From contig NC_057922.1 of the NCBI RefSeq assembly GCF_018873765.1, positions 18,195,563-18,259,562 of the forward strand: a stretch of DNA of 64,000 bases. The letters are read 5' to 3'. Every line of letters begins with the position of its first letter. The stretch's first letter is position 1. Positions 53,765-62,600 of this stretch are shown one piece after another. The notes under the pieces were generated by a model. That model saw only the letters and a program-made list of their open reading frames with translations, was not told the DNA's origin and did not search any database. A program made the position numbers and the translations under genes. This DNA is from Telopea speciosissima. Lineage: Eukaryota; Streptophyta; Magnoliopsida; Proteales; Proteaceae.

Positions 53765-53773
53765 TAAATATCT

Positions 53774-55606
53774 GGGAAATTTTCGGCGCCACCCCCTCTG
53801 TTGGACCGTTATCTTAATGTCACACCTCTAAGGTCTAAAATTTCAATTCTGACCCAAAAACTAACGGGGTTAACTGTGTGTAAGTTCAATGACTAATATA
53901 CCCTTTACAAGACCCCGCCCGTCCCTGGGCTCCTCCGCCGCTGCTGCCATTCCCACCCAACAAATCCAACACCATCGCTGCTGCAAACGCATACCCAATC
54001 CCAGGGAAGAACCATGGCTGAAACAATGGGGCTCGATGATGTGGAGCTGAAACAATGGAGGTCAGTCCACTCTGAGCCAGGGAAAAGGGGAAAATACCAT
54101 GGCTGCATCACCTCTTCCATCTCCGGTAAGGTTGGATTCCCCCCCGGATGCCTTTCCTCTCTCTCTGATTTTCTTCTCTGATCTGTGGGCGGGGGCCAGT
54201 TGGCATCGACAGCCGGAATCTCAAATCGCTGCAACGATGCCTGGCGGCGATGATGCCTATGCTCATCTCCTTCCCATCGATAATGCCGATGACCTCCCGG
54301 ATGGGTGCCTGTCCTACATCTTCAAGTCTCTGGGTTCCCTAGATCTCGAAAGCTGCTCTCTCGTCTGCCGCCGTTGGCTCCGTGTAGAGAGTCAGTGTCG
54401 ACATCGCCTCTTCCTCAAGGCTGAATCCAATCTCCTCACCAGCATCACTTCTCTCTTCACTCACTACGACGCCGTCACCACACTCGCCCTCAAATGTGTT
54501 CGCAAAAGCATACCCATCCACATCAGCGACGACGCTCTTGTCCTCTTCTCTCTCCACTGCCGTAACCTCACTACCCTCAAGCTCCATTCTTGCCGCAAGT
54601 TAACCGATGTAGGCATGGCCGCTGTCACCGTCAATTGCAAGGGATTGAAGAAGCACTATTGTAATTCCTGCAAATTTGGTGCCAAGGGCATGAACGCTGT
54701 CATCGATCACTCTTCTTCCCTCGAAGAGCTCTCCGTCGTGAGTCTTGGCAAGCTCTATTGTAATTCCTCCATTGGTAAGTTCTTCTCCTGATTTTTCCCT
54801 TTCTCTTCTTTATTCTTCTGCTGTTTCCTGTGTTTTTTTTTGGCTTAATGTCTGCATTTTCTGTTTTTTTGGCTGTAAAATCAATCTGATGGTAGATGCC
54901 TCTTCTTTCAGCTGCAAGAGCTCAGAGATCTGTGTTGAAAAAATTCTTGATGGCTTTGTTCCGCAGGCACAAATGGAGAGAAGTAGGGTCTGAGAAAAAA
55001 ACAAGAAAGTTCAGTGGGAGATGGGTTCGGTTAAGGTCGAGTAAAGCTATAGGTAAATCCAGTGGTGGCTATGGTGGTTTCAATCGGTGGGTTTTGGATG
55101 TAGAAGAAAAGATAATAATAAAAAAAAAAAAAAATTAGAAAACCAGAAGAAGAAAAAGAAGAAAAAGAAGAAACAGAAGATATAGAAGAAGAAGTCGTAG
55201 GGTCTAGTTCTTCCTCGGCTCTGTGAAGGTCCAGCGATGGTGTCTCAGCTTCTTTGTCTCCCCAAAACCCTTTTGCCATTTTTCTTTTGTTTTTGAAATC
55301 TCTCTCTCAGTTGCAGAGAGGTGAGAGGTGACTAAATGAGCGTCTGCAAGGGTGGAGAGGTGAGAGATGGCAGCGGTGACCTAACTGCCCAGTGGCAGAG
55401 ATGGGGAGTGAAGAAGAAGATTAGGTTCAGTCGTTTTAAGGGGAAGGGCAAAATAGTCTTTAACAAAAATCTAACCTGCTGACATCACTAATTAACAGAA
55501 TAAATACTAATCCCGTTAATTTTTGGGTCAAAATTGATATTTTGGTGCTTAGTGGTGTGGCATTAATATAACGGTACAATAGAGGGGGTGTCGCTGAAAA
55601 TTTCCC
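53774..55606. mobile_element. Pack-MULE, 1,833 bp, exact 9-bp TSD
   Basis: TIRs of about 100 bp open GGGAAATTTTCGGCGCCACC at the left and, reversed, GGGAAATTTTCAGCGACACC at the right, continuing through CCCTCTRTTG, ACCGTTAT, TGACCCAAAAA and TTAACGGG. The exact 9-bp repeat TAAATATCT flanks both ends (53765-53773 and 55607-55615). There is no transposase. The interior carries a captured F-box/LRR fragment on the plus strand and possibly other pieces on the minus strand. The TSD length and long TIRs place it in the Mutator superfamily; gene cargo makes it a Pack-MULE. Confidence 0.92.
54099..55138 (+). CDS. Captured F-box/LRR (VFB/SKIP2-like) fragment in chimeric ORF
   Basis: The frame 54099-54791 contains an F-box (DLPDGCLSYIFKSLGSLDLE then SCSLVCRRWLRVESQCRHRL) and early leucine-rich repeats (HCRNLTTLKLHSCRKLTDVG; CNSCKFGAKGMNAVIDHSSS; LEELSVVSLG). 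These are close to Arabidopsis VFB/SKIP2 F-box proteins, SCF ubiquitin-ligase receptors. The parent family is much longer; most LRRs are missing. A gtaagt donor after 54774 and a TTCTTTCAG acceptor at 54911 would join, in frame, to 54912-55138, a basic stretch unlike any F-box protein (about 300 residues in total). All lies within the Pack-MULE. It is either an expressed chimera or a decaying fragment; the long open frame favours recent capture. Confidence 0.7.
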
Positions 55607-55648
55607 TAAATATCTTAACAAATAATTGGAAAAAGCCAGATTTTATCT

Positions 55649-55750
55649 CGCCACTCTTGGAAGGTGGGACCCACTGCAAAACACGAACCAAATATCGCCA
55701 TTCTTGGAAGGTGGGACCCACTGCCCCACCGCAAAACACGAACCAAATAA
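55649..55750. repeat. Tandem repeat of about 48 bp upstream of Fd-GOGAT
   Basis: CTTGGAAGGTGGGACCCACT and GCAAAACACGAACCAAATA occur twice in a row, the second copy with an insert CCCCACC. It lies about 0.9 kb before the glutamate synthase ATG, just outside the Pack-MULE. Confidence 0.8.
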
Positions 55751-56620: not shown

Positions 56621-59600
56621 ATGGCTCTTCAGTCCATGGTTCCTCTGTCACAGCTTCTCTATTCCAATGGCCTCGCAGCCGGTGTTTCGCCTTCACCAGT
56701 GAAGGCAAGTCCAGTTTTCGCGGCACAAAGAGGACTTTTGTTCGCAGATTTCGCATGTCTGTGTTGTAAATCGAAGCGGACGAGACGGAGAATCGGAGGG
56801 GTCCGGAAAGGTCAGGGATCGTTACCGAGGAGCTGGTCGTCGGTGAAAGCAGTTCTTGACGTGGAACGCATCGACGTTGTTCCGAAGGATTCTATTGATC
56901 TCATTCGACATAACGAAACGAAGGTATGTAGCTTTTTGTTATCTGAATCGAGTTAGAGCTTGCATGAATTCTGTCTGTCTTCGGCATTCGTTACCTTGTT
57001 AATTGATTTTCGGCGTATAATGTGTTGGTGTTAGTGGAAGTTAAATCCCCAGTAGGTCGTATAGTTATTTTGGTTTTTGGATTTAGGCATTGATGATTGT
57101 GGTAATTCGAGTTTAGCGACTCTGTTGATTTGGAATTAGTGATCGAAGGTTAATAGTGTCAAGAGCCCTATATGAATTTGAAGAAGTCCTGGTGCAACAA
57201 TTTAATCACTAACAATGCTGCTGTAATGTTTAGAGTGAAGCAGATGGTGGAAATTGTTACGAAATAATAAGGTCACGGTGATTGAAAATGGATACGTGAG
57301 GTATTAAATACTTGGTGGGATGGCTTATGTAAGGGAGCCTGTAAAGTAGCATATATGGGATTTTCACGAAGTCTGTGTTGAGTAATCATAGGAATAGAAG
57401 ACAATGTGTTGGTTTATTTTATTTTTAGTTTTCCTTCTTTTCTGTAGGTGAGGTGGTCAGTAGGTAGTTCGTTAGTGTTAGAGCTCAAGGGTCTCCAGAA
57501 ATGATTTGGTCCCTGATCCAGGATATGACTCTCTCAGACTTCACCAGCAAAGCATTGGCATCTTCTTTATAGCACGGCAGCGCTTCCATTAAACATGGAG
57601 AAATATATAATTTCTAGATGATGAATAAAATTTTCTGGTCTACTACCGATATTATCTCCTACCTGCTATAATAGTTATAGCAACTCATATTGTTGATTCT
57701 TAATGTTAGTGGGTTGATCATCTTGTAACTCTTTACCTTTTTATTCCCTTATGTTTACCAATGGATAACCTTAATGCTTAAAAAGGTTATCCTCATCCCC
57801 TTGCTTGTATGGTTACACTGGTTCGCGTACTTTTCTTCCATCAAGTAACTTTAAGATGTATCCTGGAAACCTCAGAGTTCCATCTTTTTAATGAATGTAA
57901 TATTACAAGAGAGCTAAAAGAGAATATTATTTAGAAAATCCGAAAGATGAGGGTTGAGGGTGAGCAGAGATGTAAAGGCATGGGTACATGTAGGAATTTG
58001 AGCTTCCTTCATGCAATTGCGATTGAGATCTTTAAACATGAAGGATGACTTTGTAATCACAATATTAGCCTACAATTCCGACATGTTTCATTTTTGAAGA
58101 TAATAAATATTTTCCGTGTTTGGGTTAGATGCTCTAGCAAACTTGGGTACCCCGAGATCTCTGGTACTCCCTTCCTCACCTTCTCTGTACTACATGCTTA
58201 GATGTCATATTCTCTTTCCCTAGAGACATAGGTGTAGTACAACACAGGAAGATCCAGAGCATGATTTTGCATGTATCTTTGCATCGCATGAATGGTTCCA
58301 ATTTTCAGTTGATCTTCAATATCACATTCTATGATGAAGAACCTTACAGTATTCATTAAGTGTCCTGCAGATCCCTATCATGTGGATTCTGTCCCCCCCC
58401 CTTTTTCTTCATTGTCTTACTCTTATACCTCGCTGGCCTATGGGGATGGGTCTAATCAGGTAATATTGACAATATTTAGCCATTTCATTTTCCTGAGCAT
58501 TTAAATGACAAGCGATTCACAAGGGTCATTAACAGAGAGCCATTACAATTCACAATGGGCCCTTTTTGGCTGACTTGAATAATTTTAGCATTTTTAAGGT
58601 GTATTATGGTGAATTCTGTCCATTTCGTTTGTTTTGGTATTGTGCACTATGCTGGAGAACTAAAGTATGCTATTACCAATTTGTGACTTTGATATGGTAC
58701 TCTTATCAGGTTTCAAACTTGGAAGATATTATATCAGAGAGAGGAGCTTGTGGAGTTGGATTCATTGCAAACTTAGAAAACAAAGCATCATATGAGATTG
58801 TGAAGGATGCTCTTACAGCCCTTGGCTGCATGGAACATCGTGGTGGATGTGGGGCAGATAATGACTCTGGCGATGGTGCTGGACTGATGACTTCGATTCC
58901 TTGGGATCTGTTCAACAATTGGGCCAATACACAAGGGGTTGTTTCTTTTGATAAGTTACGCACTGGTGTGGGAATGATATTTCTTCCCAAGGATGAAAAC
59001 TCTATGAAAGCAGCCAAAAAAGGTAATTCTTCAAAGAAGTTCGAATAATATCATGTTCATATATCTTTAAGTTTTACCATGAGAACATTTTACCTATATT
59101 AAATATCATTAGGATTTGTATAGTTTGTTTCCTATACAATACAATGAAACTGGTAGCTATAACTTTGACCTCTAGAGTTTGATTGAAACAGATTCATGCA
59201 TCTCATGATTGGACTACATGGTTGAAGTGTAGAAGTACATTTTTTTTAGAAAATCAGTTACATATTGCACAAGCTTCTTACGCTTCTCGTATGATCAATT
59301 CTTCTTGGTGTTCTGTCCTCTTTTAGATCATGATGAATTCCGTTTGATTACATATTTCCTAATTTTTAATGTCTATTTTTGCATATAAGTTTCTCTTTCC
59401 ATGGATCAGCTTGCTCAAAGTTATTCCATTAGCCTATTGGTTGAATGTATTTTTGATAACCAATGCAGTAATGATGTTTCTTTTTCTTTTGAAAAAACTT
59501 GAGAGTAATTTCCTTGAACATTTCCGCAGTTATTGCAAATATCTTTAAAGAAGAAGGTCTTGAGGTACTTGGATGGCGACCTGTTCCTGTTAATATGTCT

Positions 59601-62600
59601 GTAGTTGGTTACTATGCAAAACAAACCATGCCCAACATACAGCAAATATTTGTAAAAGTTTCAAAGGAAGAGAACATTGATGATATTGAAAGGGAACTGT
59701 ACATCTGTCGGAAGTTGATTGAAAGAGCATCCAAGTCAGAAAAGTGGGGTGATGAGCTTTATTTCTGTTCTTTGTCCAATCAAACTATAGTTTACAAGGG
59801 TATGCTTCGCTCTGAAGTTCTGGGGCAATTTTATTCTGACCTCCGGCGTGATCTTTATAAATCTCCTTTTGCCATCTACCATCGGCGATATAGCACAAAC
59901 ACTAGCCCCAGATGGCCACTTGCACAGCCTATGAGGTTACTTGGCCATAATGGAGAGATCAATACAATACAGGTTTGCCTTTTCTTCTCCTGGCCTTTAT
60001 AGTTATTTATATGCCTTCAGTATGCATATATATGAAGTGGCAACTTTATGCAGGGGAACTTGAACTGGATGCAATCTCGAGAAACTTCACTCAAGTCTCC
60101 TGTTTGGCGTGGTCGTGAAAATGAAATATGTCCTTTTGGAAACTCGAAGGCATCTGACTCGGCGAACCTTGATAGTGCAGCTGAAGTATGACCTCCTAAA
60201 CAACTGTTATCTTTGCTGAGATAATTTGTTTATTTTCTTTACATGCCCTTTGTAAATTTCATATTTCTTTGCATGATTCACTGGGGAAGAAGGAAGGATA
60301 AGAAAAACTAGAGTTGTTTATGATTTGTATCGGTCCATATTCCTCTGAATTTGAGAGAATTGTATTCTTTTGTTATATTTTAATTATTGATACAATTATA
60401 TCTATACAAAATTATGAAGATATGGTTACAATAGTTCTCCTTTGATGGAACCATAACTCCATAAGAACTCCTAAGTCCTTTCAAGCTCTATGAAGCAGAT
60501 AATGAATCAGTTAGTAACTAAGAGATTTTTGTCGATCCAAAAAGTTAAAAAAAAAGGAAAGAATATAAAGTATACAGTTGTAAAAAATATACTGAAGTTC
60601 AAGTATCAGACTTTTTCAAGAAGTTTTAAGTTGGCAATTGTAACATAGCAAGGGTACTCGAAGAATAATGCCATGGTTGTAATACCAAGGAAAGCAAATT
60701 TTTGGAATATAAAGTGATCTCTTGAGTTTGGCAGGTTTGCTTGATTTGATTCAAGTTGAAACCACATCCAAGAGTTAAGCTGATCTTCATGTCATCACTG
60801 AGGAACAATCTGGGTGCTAAAAGGTGATGTGGTATAGCAGTTATTACATTTTGCAATAAATGGGCATTTTTAAGGAAGGAATAGATTTATTTCAGAGGAG
60901 AGACAAGAAGGATCCCAAAGTTATGTGCATTTATTCCTTTGTTATCTCTAAAGATATGGGCTTGAAGCTGAGTTTTGAAGTTCATCTCCAATTTAGCTCA
61001 ATAACAGAAACCTTGATGAGTATGTCTGTCTGATGGATTGTAGTTGGCTTGGTAGTGACTCGAGCTTGTAATCGTAGTTCAAAAACTCGCATTTCAGTCA
61101 AGATCGAAATTAGCTAGATTAGCGAAACTTCGACCGAAGCAGTGCATTTTTTTTCCGTGAGTTTCGTTTGGCCATTTCTGGGGGCAAACGGATGAAATGA
61201 CTGGAATTTTCAATCAAAATCACTGAAATGATCAAAATTTCGACAAAACAGTGCATTTTTTTCTGTGACCGAAATTAGTGAAATATCAACTGAAATTATG
61301 CTGCTTCTAGGTTTCGTCTCGGGCGTGTTGAAACTTGAAACTAGCGAAATTTCGCCGAGATTTCGACAAAATTTTGAACTATGCTTAGAATTCAAAATGA
61401 AGAAAGAAAGAAATGATGATAAATGTTCCCAACATCTCACAAGACTTTACGTCAAACTGAGGTTTGGATATTAGACATGCCTATCTAGCCCTAAATAGTA
61501 TAGAGATGAGCATTGCTGTTCCTTCGGTCAATATATTGGGGAGTAGACCCCTGGTCTTCATATATATGGAAAACAAAATTGCCTTTTTCCTCTTCATTGA
61601 AGTTCTGGTCAATGTAACCGGTTAGGTCCTTTCACACTGAAAGGGATTATGAGTAATGTTGATGGCAATTTTGCTGTTACAGTGCAGACTCTTAGGCATT
61701 AGAATATAAAACCCCAACAAGTTCATAAGACTCTTCAGAAGAAATCTCTCTCTCTCTCTCTCTCTCTCTGACTCGCACACACACACACATCGACTCATGG
61801 GAACATCTGTTAATATTTGGGGGAGATGCCAATACACATGGGATTACTTGATTGAATCAAGTTCTGAAGTTTGATACATGACCAATCAAGAGGATAAGTT
61901 ATCTATCTGATGGTCAGTTTGCCGTTCATCCACATGGCAGAATATAGGCGTCCTTGGAGAGAAGATATGTCAATGGGCTGTGGAGTTTACTCTCTCTTTC
62001 TTTCATTGTTTCTCCTAACTTTAAACATTTGATGCTATTGTTCTGAAAAACAGAAAAAACTGATGCTATTACACCATAATAACTGTTCCAAAGCTCTATT
62101 GGATCTGTTATCTGCTAATTCTTCTAAGAATTACATGTTTATTTCTCAGATTATTTCATATGTTTGTTTGGAGTTGACATGGTTCTCTTATTATTTATTC
62201 TGGTTTAGGCTTTATAGATCTTTTAAAGCCCTTTCTCAGTCTAATTTGGTTCCCTCTGGTTTTTACAGTTGTTACTAAGAAGTGGCCGCAGTCCAGAGGA
62301 AGCTCTCATGATTCTCGTTCCAGAGGCATACAAGAATCATCCTACTTTGACGATAAAATATCCAGAGGTAATTTATGTGGACAGTTACAGTTATGCAAAG
62401 TTACATCTACTTCTACTGTTATTTGCTTCCTTGCCATGGTGGCATGCACTTTTTTATTTTATTTTTTAATATAGAAGGCCCTCTGGAAAGGAAGTAATAC
62501 AAATTCTCCTACATTTTCTTAAATTTTTTTTTTCTTAAATCACCAACGTTGCCACTTTATTAGATATTTTTCAATTATGCTCATTTATCTCTTTCAGTAA

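What the first reader, a model, noticed from the sequence alone, without database searches (positions are those of the whole stretch)
53774..55606. Textbook Pack-MULE carrying an F-box gene fragment
Long terminal inverted repeats, an exact 9-bp target duplication (TAAATATCT) and a VFB/SKIP2-like F-box plus partial LRR inside, without transposase. The cargo keeps an open frame of over 220 residues, which suggests recent capture or selection. The duplication and TIRs are directly visible; the F-box family name comes from remembered motifs.
Basis: partly seen in the sequence, partly recalled or inferred. Interest (0 to 1): 0.7.

Follow-up and report, generated by a model that had tools for sequence, protein, structure and literature searches.

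The report
Multi-copy Pack-MULE with F-box fragment
This is a plant jumping gene that picked up the front part of a host F-box gene and copied it around the genome; the stolen piece shows no sign of being kept for a function, so it is a good but ordinary example of a known kind.

Summary
At 53774-55606 there are 99-bp terminal inverted repeats (86% complementary) and an exact 9-bp target duplication, TAAATATCT. The element is one of at least 11 copies in this 823-Mb assembly. Nine of 11 copies have their own 8-9/9 flanking duplication; 0 of 110 mismatched left/right pairs do. Related TIRs flank ~7-kb elements with MuDR-type transposase domains, so this is a non-autonomous MULE. The nearest parental gene found is an F-box/LRR gene (L013, 412 codons) in a cluster on another large contig; it runs on past the captured part and shows no TIR match. 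Other interior pieces match other loci: the cargo is a mosaic made before amplification. Selection is not supported: across 11 copies changes fall evenly on codon positions (52/45/44), omega is about 1.2 (interval 0.79-1.83), and 7 of 11 copies have a broken frame. The open frame here is best explained by youth (nearest copy K2P 0.032). It lies about 1 kb upstream of an apparent glutamate synthase gene. Expression and small RNAs could not be tested. Verdict: genuine Pack-MULE, ordinary.

The parts
53765..53773 (.). left target site duplication TAAATATCT
   Evidence: 9/9 identical to 55607-55615
53774..53872 (+). left terminal inverted repeat (GGGAAATTTTCGGCGCCACCCCCTC...)
   Evidence: 86% complementary to right arm; family pattern 780 hits vs 0 in control
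54027..54179 (+). left internal segment shared with other loci of the MULE family (L029, L030)
   Evidence: 86% to L029 over 154 columns; L030 matches el 2-406 at 70%
54193..54229 (+). captured 5' leader of the F-box/LRR gene
   Evidence: 95% over 37 bp to L013 upstream of its CDS
54237..54749 (+). captured F-box/LRR coding fragment (171 codons from the native ATG)
   Evidence: 89.9% nt to L013 = C5:4960940-4961452; Pfam F-box
54099..54791 (+). 230-aa ORF containing the fragment; the fragment evolves neutrally across copies
54750..54771 (+). 22-bp near-repeat of 54651-54672 at the junction after the F-box fragment, recognisable in all 11 copies
54857..54977 (+). pieces matching L032 (97% over 67 columns) and an intron/exon boundary-like stretch of L033 (91% over 82 bp)
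54972..55116 (+). piece matching L035 (93% over 145 columns), itself in a repeated stretch
55508..55606 (-). right terminal inverted repeat
55607..55615 (.). right target site duplication TAAATATCT
56621..59999 (+). flanking gene, not part of the element: putative first ORF at 56621 (no Pfam hit; its link to the exons is inferred) and GATase_2 exons at 58533-59999 (glutamate synthase-like; specific name recalled)

Best explanation
A non-autonomous Mutator-like element (Pack-MULE). A MULE of a large family (TIR GGGAAATTWTC...) acquired the leader and first 171 codons of an F-box/LRR gene of the C5 cluster type, plus pieces of other loci, probably by template switching during repair or replication (inferred). 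The finished mosaic was then mobilised in trans by MuDR-type transposase from longer relatives to at least 11 sites (shown: copies, TSDs, related TIRs; inferred: trans-mobilisation). The cargo has since drifted without detectable constraint (shown for the pooled copies). The reading frame here is open because the copy is young and has had few hits (inferred).
For: TIR and TSD. Eleven copies; 9 of 11 with their own TSD at 8-9/9, mismatched pairs 0 of 110. Transposase domains DBD_Tnp_Mut, MULE and SWIM inside L049 and L050, whose termini match at 72-83%; L050 has TSD 9/9. Parental-type gene L013 (91.4% to the copy consensus over 513 sites, 412 codons) continues past the capture boundary and matches the element only at el 420-456 and 464-976. 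The 11 copies share the same internal junctions, with a 22-bp near-repeat. Codon positions 52/45/44, omega 1.2, interval 0.79-1.83, frame broken in 7 of 11.
Against: No empty site was found: joined flanks hit only the window's own flanks and one 46-bp match elsewhere. L009 has no clear TSD (5/9) and L005 has 7/9. L049 has no 9/9 TSD at the register I used. L013 may be a sister of the true donor: consensus and L013 differ at 44 of 513 sites, with changes polarised to both branches (16 element, 25 donor, 3 unpolarised), and a 300-bp fragment (L015) is almost as close (90.7%). The template-switch step rests on junction anatomy alone. The transposase frames of L049 and L050 are split (introns or damage, not resolved), so present activity is not shown.
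Confidence: 0.96

Rival explanations
1. A functional, selected F-box gene carried by a transposon (domesticated cargo).
For: 4 of 11 copies (L001-L004) keep the fragment free of stops and indels, and they group together (0.995 support) in the element tree. A GT...AG pair that could splice the F-box part to a second exon is present in 11 of 11 copies.
Against: omega about 1.2 for 117 distinct changes, and 1.39 for the 30 distinct changes of L001-L004. The putative second-exon peptide varies from 8 to 95 residues among copies. Most of the LRR region of the parental gene is missing (171 of 412 codons kept). Seven of 11 copies are broken. For the window copy alone (8 changes) the test has no power.
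Confidence: 0.03
2. An siRNA source: the amplified fragments feed small RNAs that dampen the F-box/LRR cluster. This would be an effect of the Pack-MULE, not a different identity.
For: At least 11 copies; about 90% identity to L013 over 513 bp; captured sequences acting as siRNA reservoirs in maize are described in a review (PMC13317346, passages seen).
Against: No small-RNA or methylation data here. Apart from L013 (90%) and L014 (85%), the gene-like matches listed share 72-82% with the element, so any effect would fall on one or few genes.
Confidence: 0.12
3. TIR and TSD are chance or an assembly artefact around an ordinary F-box pseudogene.
For: None found.
Against: At least 11 copies at unrelated sites with precise ends, 9 of them with their own TSD.
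Confidence: 0.005

Closest known systems
Pack-MULEs of rice (more than 3000; PMC8903248, passages seen)
   Same: TIR homology to autonomous MULEs, TSD, captured coding fragment, no transposase. Here too the captured part is the 5' end of a gene and GC-richer (0.53-0.61) than the element ends (0.36-0.41); a preference for GC-rich sequence in rice and maize is stated in PMC3310237 (passages seen).
   Different: Nothing of principle; different plant, different donor.
Tomato PM-ZIBP Pack-MULE family (13 tandem-TIR copies and 1 single-TIR copy; PMC3310237, passages seen)
   Same: Multi-copy Pack-MULE family with one captured gene type; extra TIRs occur.
   Different: Here only one of the 11 copies (C6) showed an extra TIR, at one end.
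Pack-TIR / FoSTeST elements of animals (PMC8277862, passages seen)
   Same: Chimeric interior, template-switching-like junctions, multi-copy amplification.
   Different: Plant MULE family; capture step not observed.

Membership tests
Pack-MULE | Long terminal inverted repeats | tested here: met
   99 nt, 86%
Pack-MULE | Target site duplication of about 9 bp | tested here: met
   9/9 here; 9 of 11 copies with 8 or more of 9, mismatched pairs 0 of 110; L005 7/9 and L009 5/9
Pack-MULE | TIR homologous to autonomous-type MULE with MuDR-type transposase | tested here: met
   L049 and L050: terminal matches 72-83%; DBD_Tnp_Mut and SWIM above cut-off in both, MULE above cut-off in L049 (39.5) and below in L050 (24.5, cut-off 27.6); frames split, so activity not shown
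Pack-MULE | No transposase inside | tested here: met
   Two ORFs searched in Pfam, no transposase; L049 and L050 match only the termini
Pack-MULE | Carries a fragment of a host gene present elsewhere without TIRs | tested here: met
   L013, C5:4960940-4961452, 90% over 513 bp, gene continues beyond, no TIR match in the 5-kb locus
Pack-MULE | Single empty site in related genome | tested here: inconclusive
   Joined flanks find no second site in the same assembly; no related plant genome was available
F-box/LRR gene (cargo) | F-box and LRR domains | tested here: met
   Parental-type gene L013: F-box 26.7 bits and LRR_6 48.8 bits over cut-off (F-box-like 24.2 just under 24.3); fragment: F-box over, LRR under cut-off
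VFB/SKIP2 subfamily (cargo) | Placement with Arabidopsis VFB1-4/SKIP2 in a tree | not testable with these tools
   No plant protein set held; name is recalled. Best PDB match is F-box/LRR-repeat protein 2 (6o60_C)
Functional chimeric gene | Selection on the frame | tested here: not met
   omega about 1.2, interval 0.79-1.83, pooled over 11 copies

The most novel reading that the evidence does not exclude
The family makes a spliced chimeric RNA (F-box domain joined over a GT...AG intron at 54775-54911 to a new 75-residue tail in this copy), or small RNAs, that interfere with the fast-evolving F-box/LRR cluster; in this window the insertion also changes the promoter of the glutamate synthase-like gene 1 kb downstream.
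Probability: 0.06. Interest if true: 0.45.

Novelty: new member of a known kind. Interest (0 to 1): 0.15.

Why it matters
It is a well-anchored Pack-MULE family: copies, a parental-type gene and transposase-bearing relatives lie in one assembly. It documents a mosaic capture made once, then amplified, and decay of the captured frame without detectable constraint. It does not change any general view.

Tried and rejected
Selection on the captured frame: tested by codon position and by placing the same mutation types at random; rejected for the pooled copies. For the window copy alone (8 changes from the majority base in the fragment) there is no power.

Empty site: 300+300 bp of joined flanks searched in the own genome; only the two window flanks and one 46-bp match came back. 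Inconclusive.

Transposase source among the first relatives: ten ORFs from six relatives (L018, L019, L021, L022, L026, L028) gave no transposase in Pfam; L022 (4.7 kb) has gag and zinc-knuckle matches instead, a retrotransposon piece. The PF10551 search gave 150 scored matches of 827 candidates; compared by eye with the capped TIR lists, I saw none near a TIR. Four TIR pairs 6.8-8.5 kb apart stood in the part that was listed (a capped list); two were fetched and gave L049 and L050, whose MULE matches are too weak to have been in the list. The other two (starting at C4:61724813 and C6:28106126) were not fetched. L027 was fetched and showed one TIR only.

Chimeric spliced gene: splice-site motifs present in 11 of 11 copies, but the second-exon frame is not conserved.

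Naming the plant: size (823 Mb) and 11 large contigs recall Telopea (Proteaceae); this is from memory. The 8 papers listed of 10 found included none with that genome as its title subject; not confirmed.

Dating: K2P 0.032 to the nearest copy. With recalled neutral rates of 1.3e-8 to about 3e-9 per site per year this is roughly 1-5 million years; inference only.

Full report
Observation. The reported features are present at the stated coordinates. The arms 53774-53872 and 55508-55606 are 99 nt long and 86% complementary. The nine bases on either side are identical, TAAATATCT. The interior holds a 230-aa open frame, 54099-54791, with F-box and F-box-like domains above Pfam's cut-offs and a sub-threshold LRR.

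Not chance. A search of the window's own 823-Mb assembly with the whole element gave ten further copies, eight of them over the whole or nearly the whole length and two (C11, C76) interrupted by insertions (the tool scored 40 of 580 candidates, so 11 is a lower bound). Each lies at a different site. Six of 11 have a 9/9 TSD, three 8/9, one 7/9, one 5/9; none of 110 left/right pairs taken from different copies reaches 8/9. A 25-base TIR pattern has 383 forward and 397 reverse hits with up to two mismatches, the reversed control none.

Family. Other elements with related termini but other interiors are common. Ten were examined for TSDs: six have 8-9/9 in register (L017, L019, L021, L022, L023, L026; that of L026 is a run of A), four have 3-7/9 (L018, L024, L025, L028). 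Of four TIR pairs 6.8-8.5 kb apart in the listed part, two were fetched. L050 has a 9/9 TSD, L049 does not at the register used. Both contain pieces with DBD_Tnp_Mut, MULE and SWIM matches, the domains of MuDR-type transposase; the MULE match of L050 is below the cut-off, and the pieces lie in separate frames. So the termini belong to a MULE family, and the window element is a non-autonomous member.

Cargo. Element positions 464-976 (window 54237-54749) match C5:4960940-4961452 (L013) at 89.9%, and positions 420-456 match its leader at 95%. L013 has a 412-codon open frame with F-box and LRR domains, in a region of C5 (about 4.91-5.07 Mb) with many related matches. L013 continues where the element departs, matches nothing of the element outside these two stretches, and is the closest of the 11 paralogous pieces compared (91.4% to the copy consensus over 513 sites; a 300-bp fragment L015 has 90.7%). 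In a FastTree of the fragment the split between the 11 element copies and the genes has 0.997 support; L013 branches nearest to the element, but its order against L015 is weak (0.696).

Mosaic. Left-hand internal sequence is shared with other loci of the MULE family (L029, L030, L031), and the part after the F-box fragment consists of short matches to L032, L033/L034 (a stretch shared by the two loci that looks like an intron/exon boundary), L035 and others. L035 and L020 share 502 bp at 91% and 527 bp at 87%, so that source is itself repetitive. At the junction after the F-box fragment there is a 22-bp near-repeat of sequence 99 bp upstream, recognisable in all 11 copies (the upstream partner in L008 is damaged). 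This is what template switching would leave, and its presence in every copy shows that the mosaic was made before amplification. Template-switching origins are proposed for animal Pack-TIRs in PMC8277862 (passages seen).

Selection. Against the majority base of the 11 copies, the 513-bp fragment has 141 changes, 52/45/44 by codon position, 99 replacement and 42 silent, 6 of them making stops; random placement of the same changes gives 93.5, 47.5 and 3.5. Counting each distinct change once: 82 and 35 (expected 77.5 and 39.5), omega 1.19, 95% interval 0.79-1.83. For the four copies with intact frames: 24 and 6 of 30 distinct changes, omega 1.39. Consensus against L013: 31 replacement, 13 silent, omega 0.96; polarised, the element branch has 10 and 6 (omega 0.72, not distinguishable from neutral, P 0.34) and the L013 branch 18 and 7 (omega 1.04). 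The fragment has fewer changes per site (0.025) than five of the six other parts (0.036-0.071), but the adjoining 977-1198, which lies outside the F-box fragment, is as low (0.023), so the low rate is not special to the coding piece. Seven of 11 copies have stops, frameshifts or inserts. The frame is best explained by youth, not selection; for the window copy alone selection cannot be excluded on so few changes.

Chimeric gene. GGTAAGTTC and TTCTTTCAG bound a possible intron of 136-140 bp in 11 of 11 copies (54775-54911 here) that would splice the F-box part to a second exon, but the downstream frame ends after 8 to 95 residues in different copies. I treat this as possible, unlikely.

Setting. 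The element lies about 1 kb upstream of an open frame at 56621, followed by exons with a glutamine amidotransferase class-II domain, apparently a ferredoxin-type glutamate synthase (specific name recalled; that the 56621 frame is its first exon is inferred). Effects on that gene are untested.

Comparison. [quoted passage not shown] The features that could be tested here are met, the empty site being inconclusive. The case is a new member of a known kind.

Noticed in passing
L012 3828-4034 (C6:56739090-56739296): The C6 copy has a third TIR (140-bp partial element end, 93%) just outside one end, and both ends are followed by TTATGTTTT: an extra-TIR form like those described in PMC3310237.
   Followed up: partly
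L021 2968-4319 (C9:60645967-60647318): Another element with these TIRs and a 9/9 TSD carries a frame with an armadillo repeat (Pfam Arm 26.0 bits, cut-off 20.6): a second Pack-MULE candidate, with a weak plant U-box ARM match (18.4, cut-off 33).
   Followed up: partly
C5:4.91-5.07 Mb and C9:5.61-5.70 Mb: Clusters of F-box/LRR-like matches; rough omega 0.49-0.88 between L013 and five paralogues, so they evolve fast.
   Followed up: partly
L033 3037-3198 and L034 2967-3128: Two loci share a stretch (82%) with a short open frame beginning MALFW seen by eye, perhaps an upstream ORF in a 5' leader; a piece of this kind sits in the element.
   Followed up: no
L020 1137-2955 and L035 2366-3396: Two stretches of about 500 bp shared at 87-91% between distant loci: another repeated, probably non-autonomous element that supplied or shares el 1199-1343.
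   Followed up: no
L022 2795-3280 (C2): A 4.7-kb element of the same TIR family holds a retrotransposon gag and zinc-knuckle piece.
   Followed up: no
window 55645-55749: Imperfect direct repeats (33 bp and 25 bp, about 50 bp apart) just right of the insertion.
   Followed up: no
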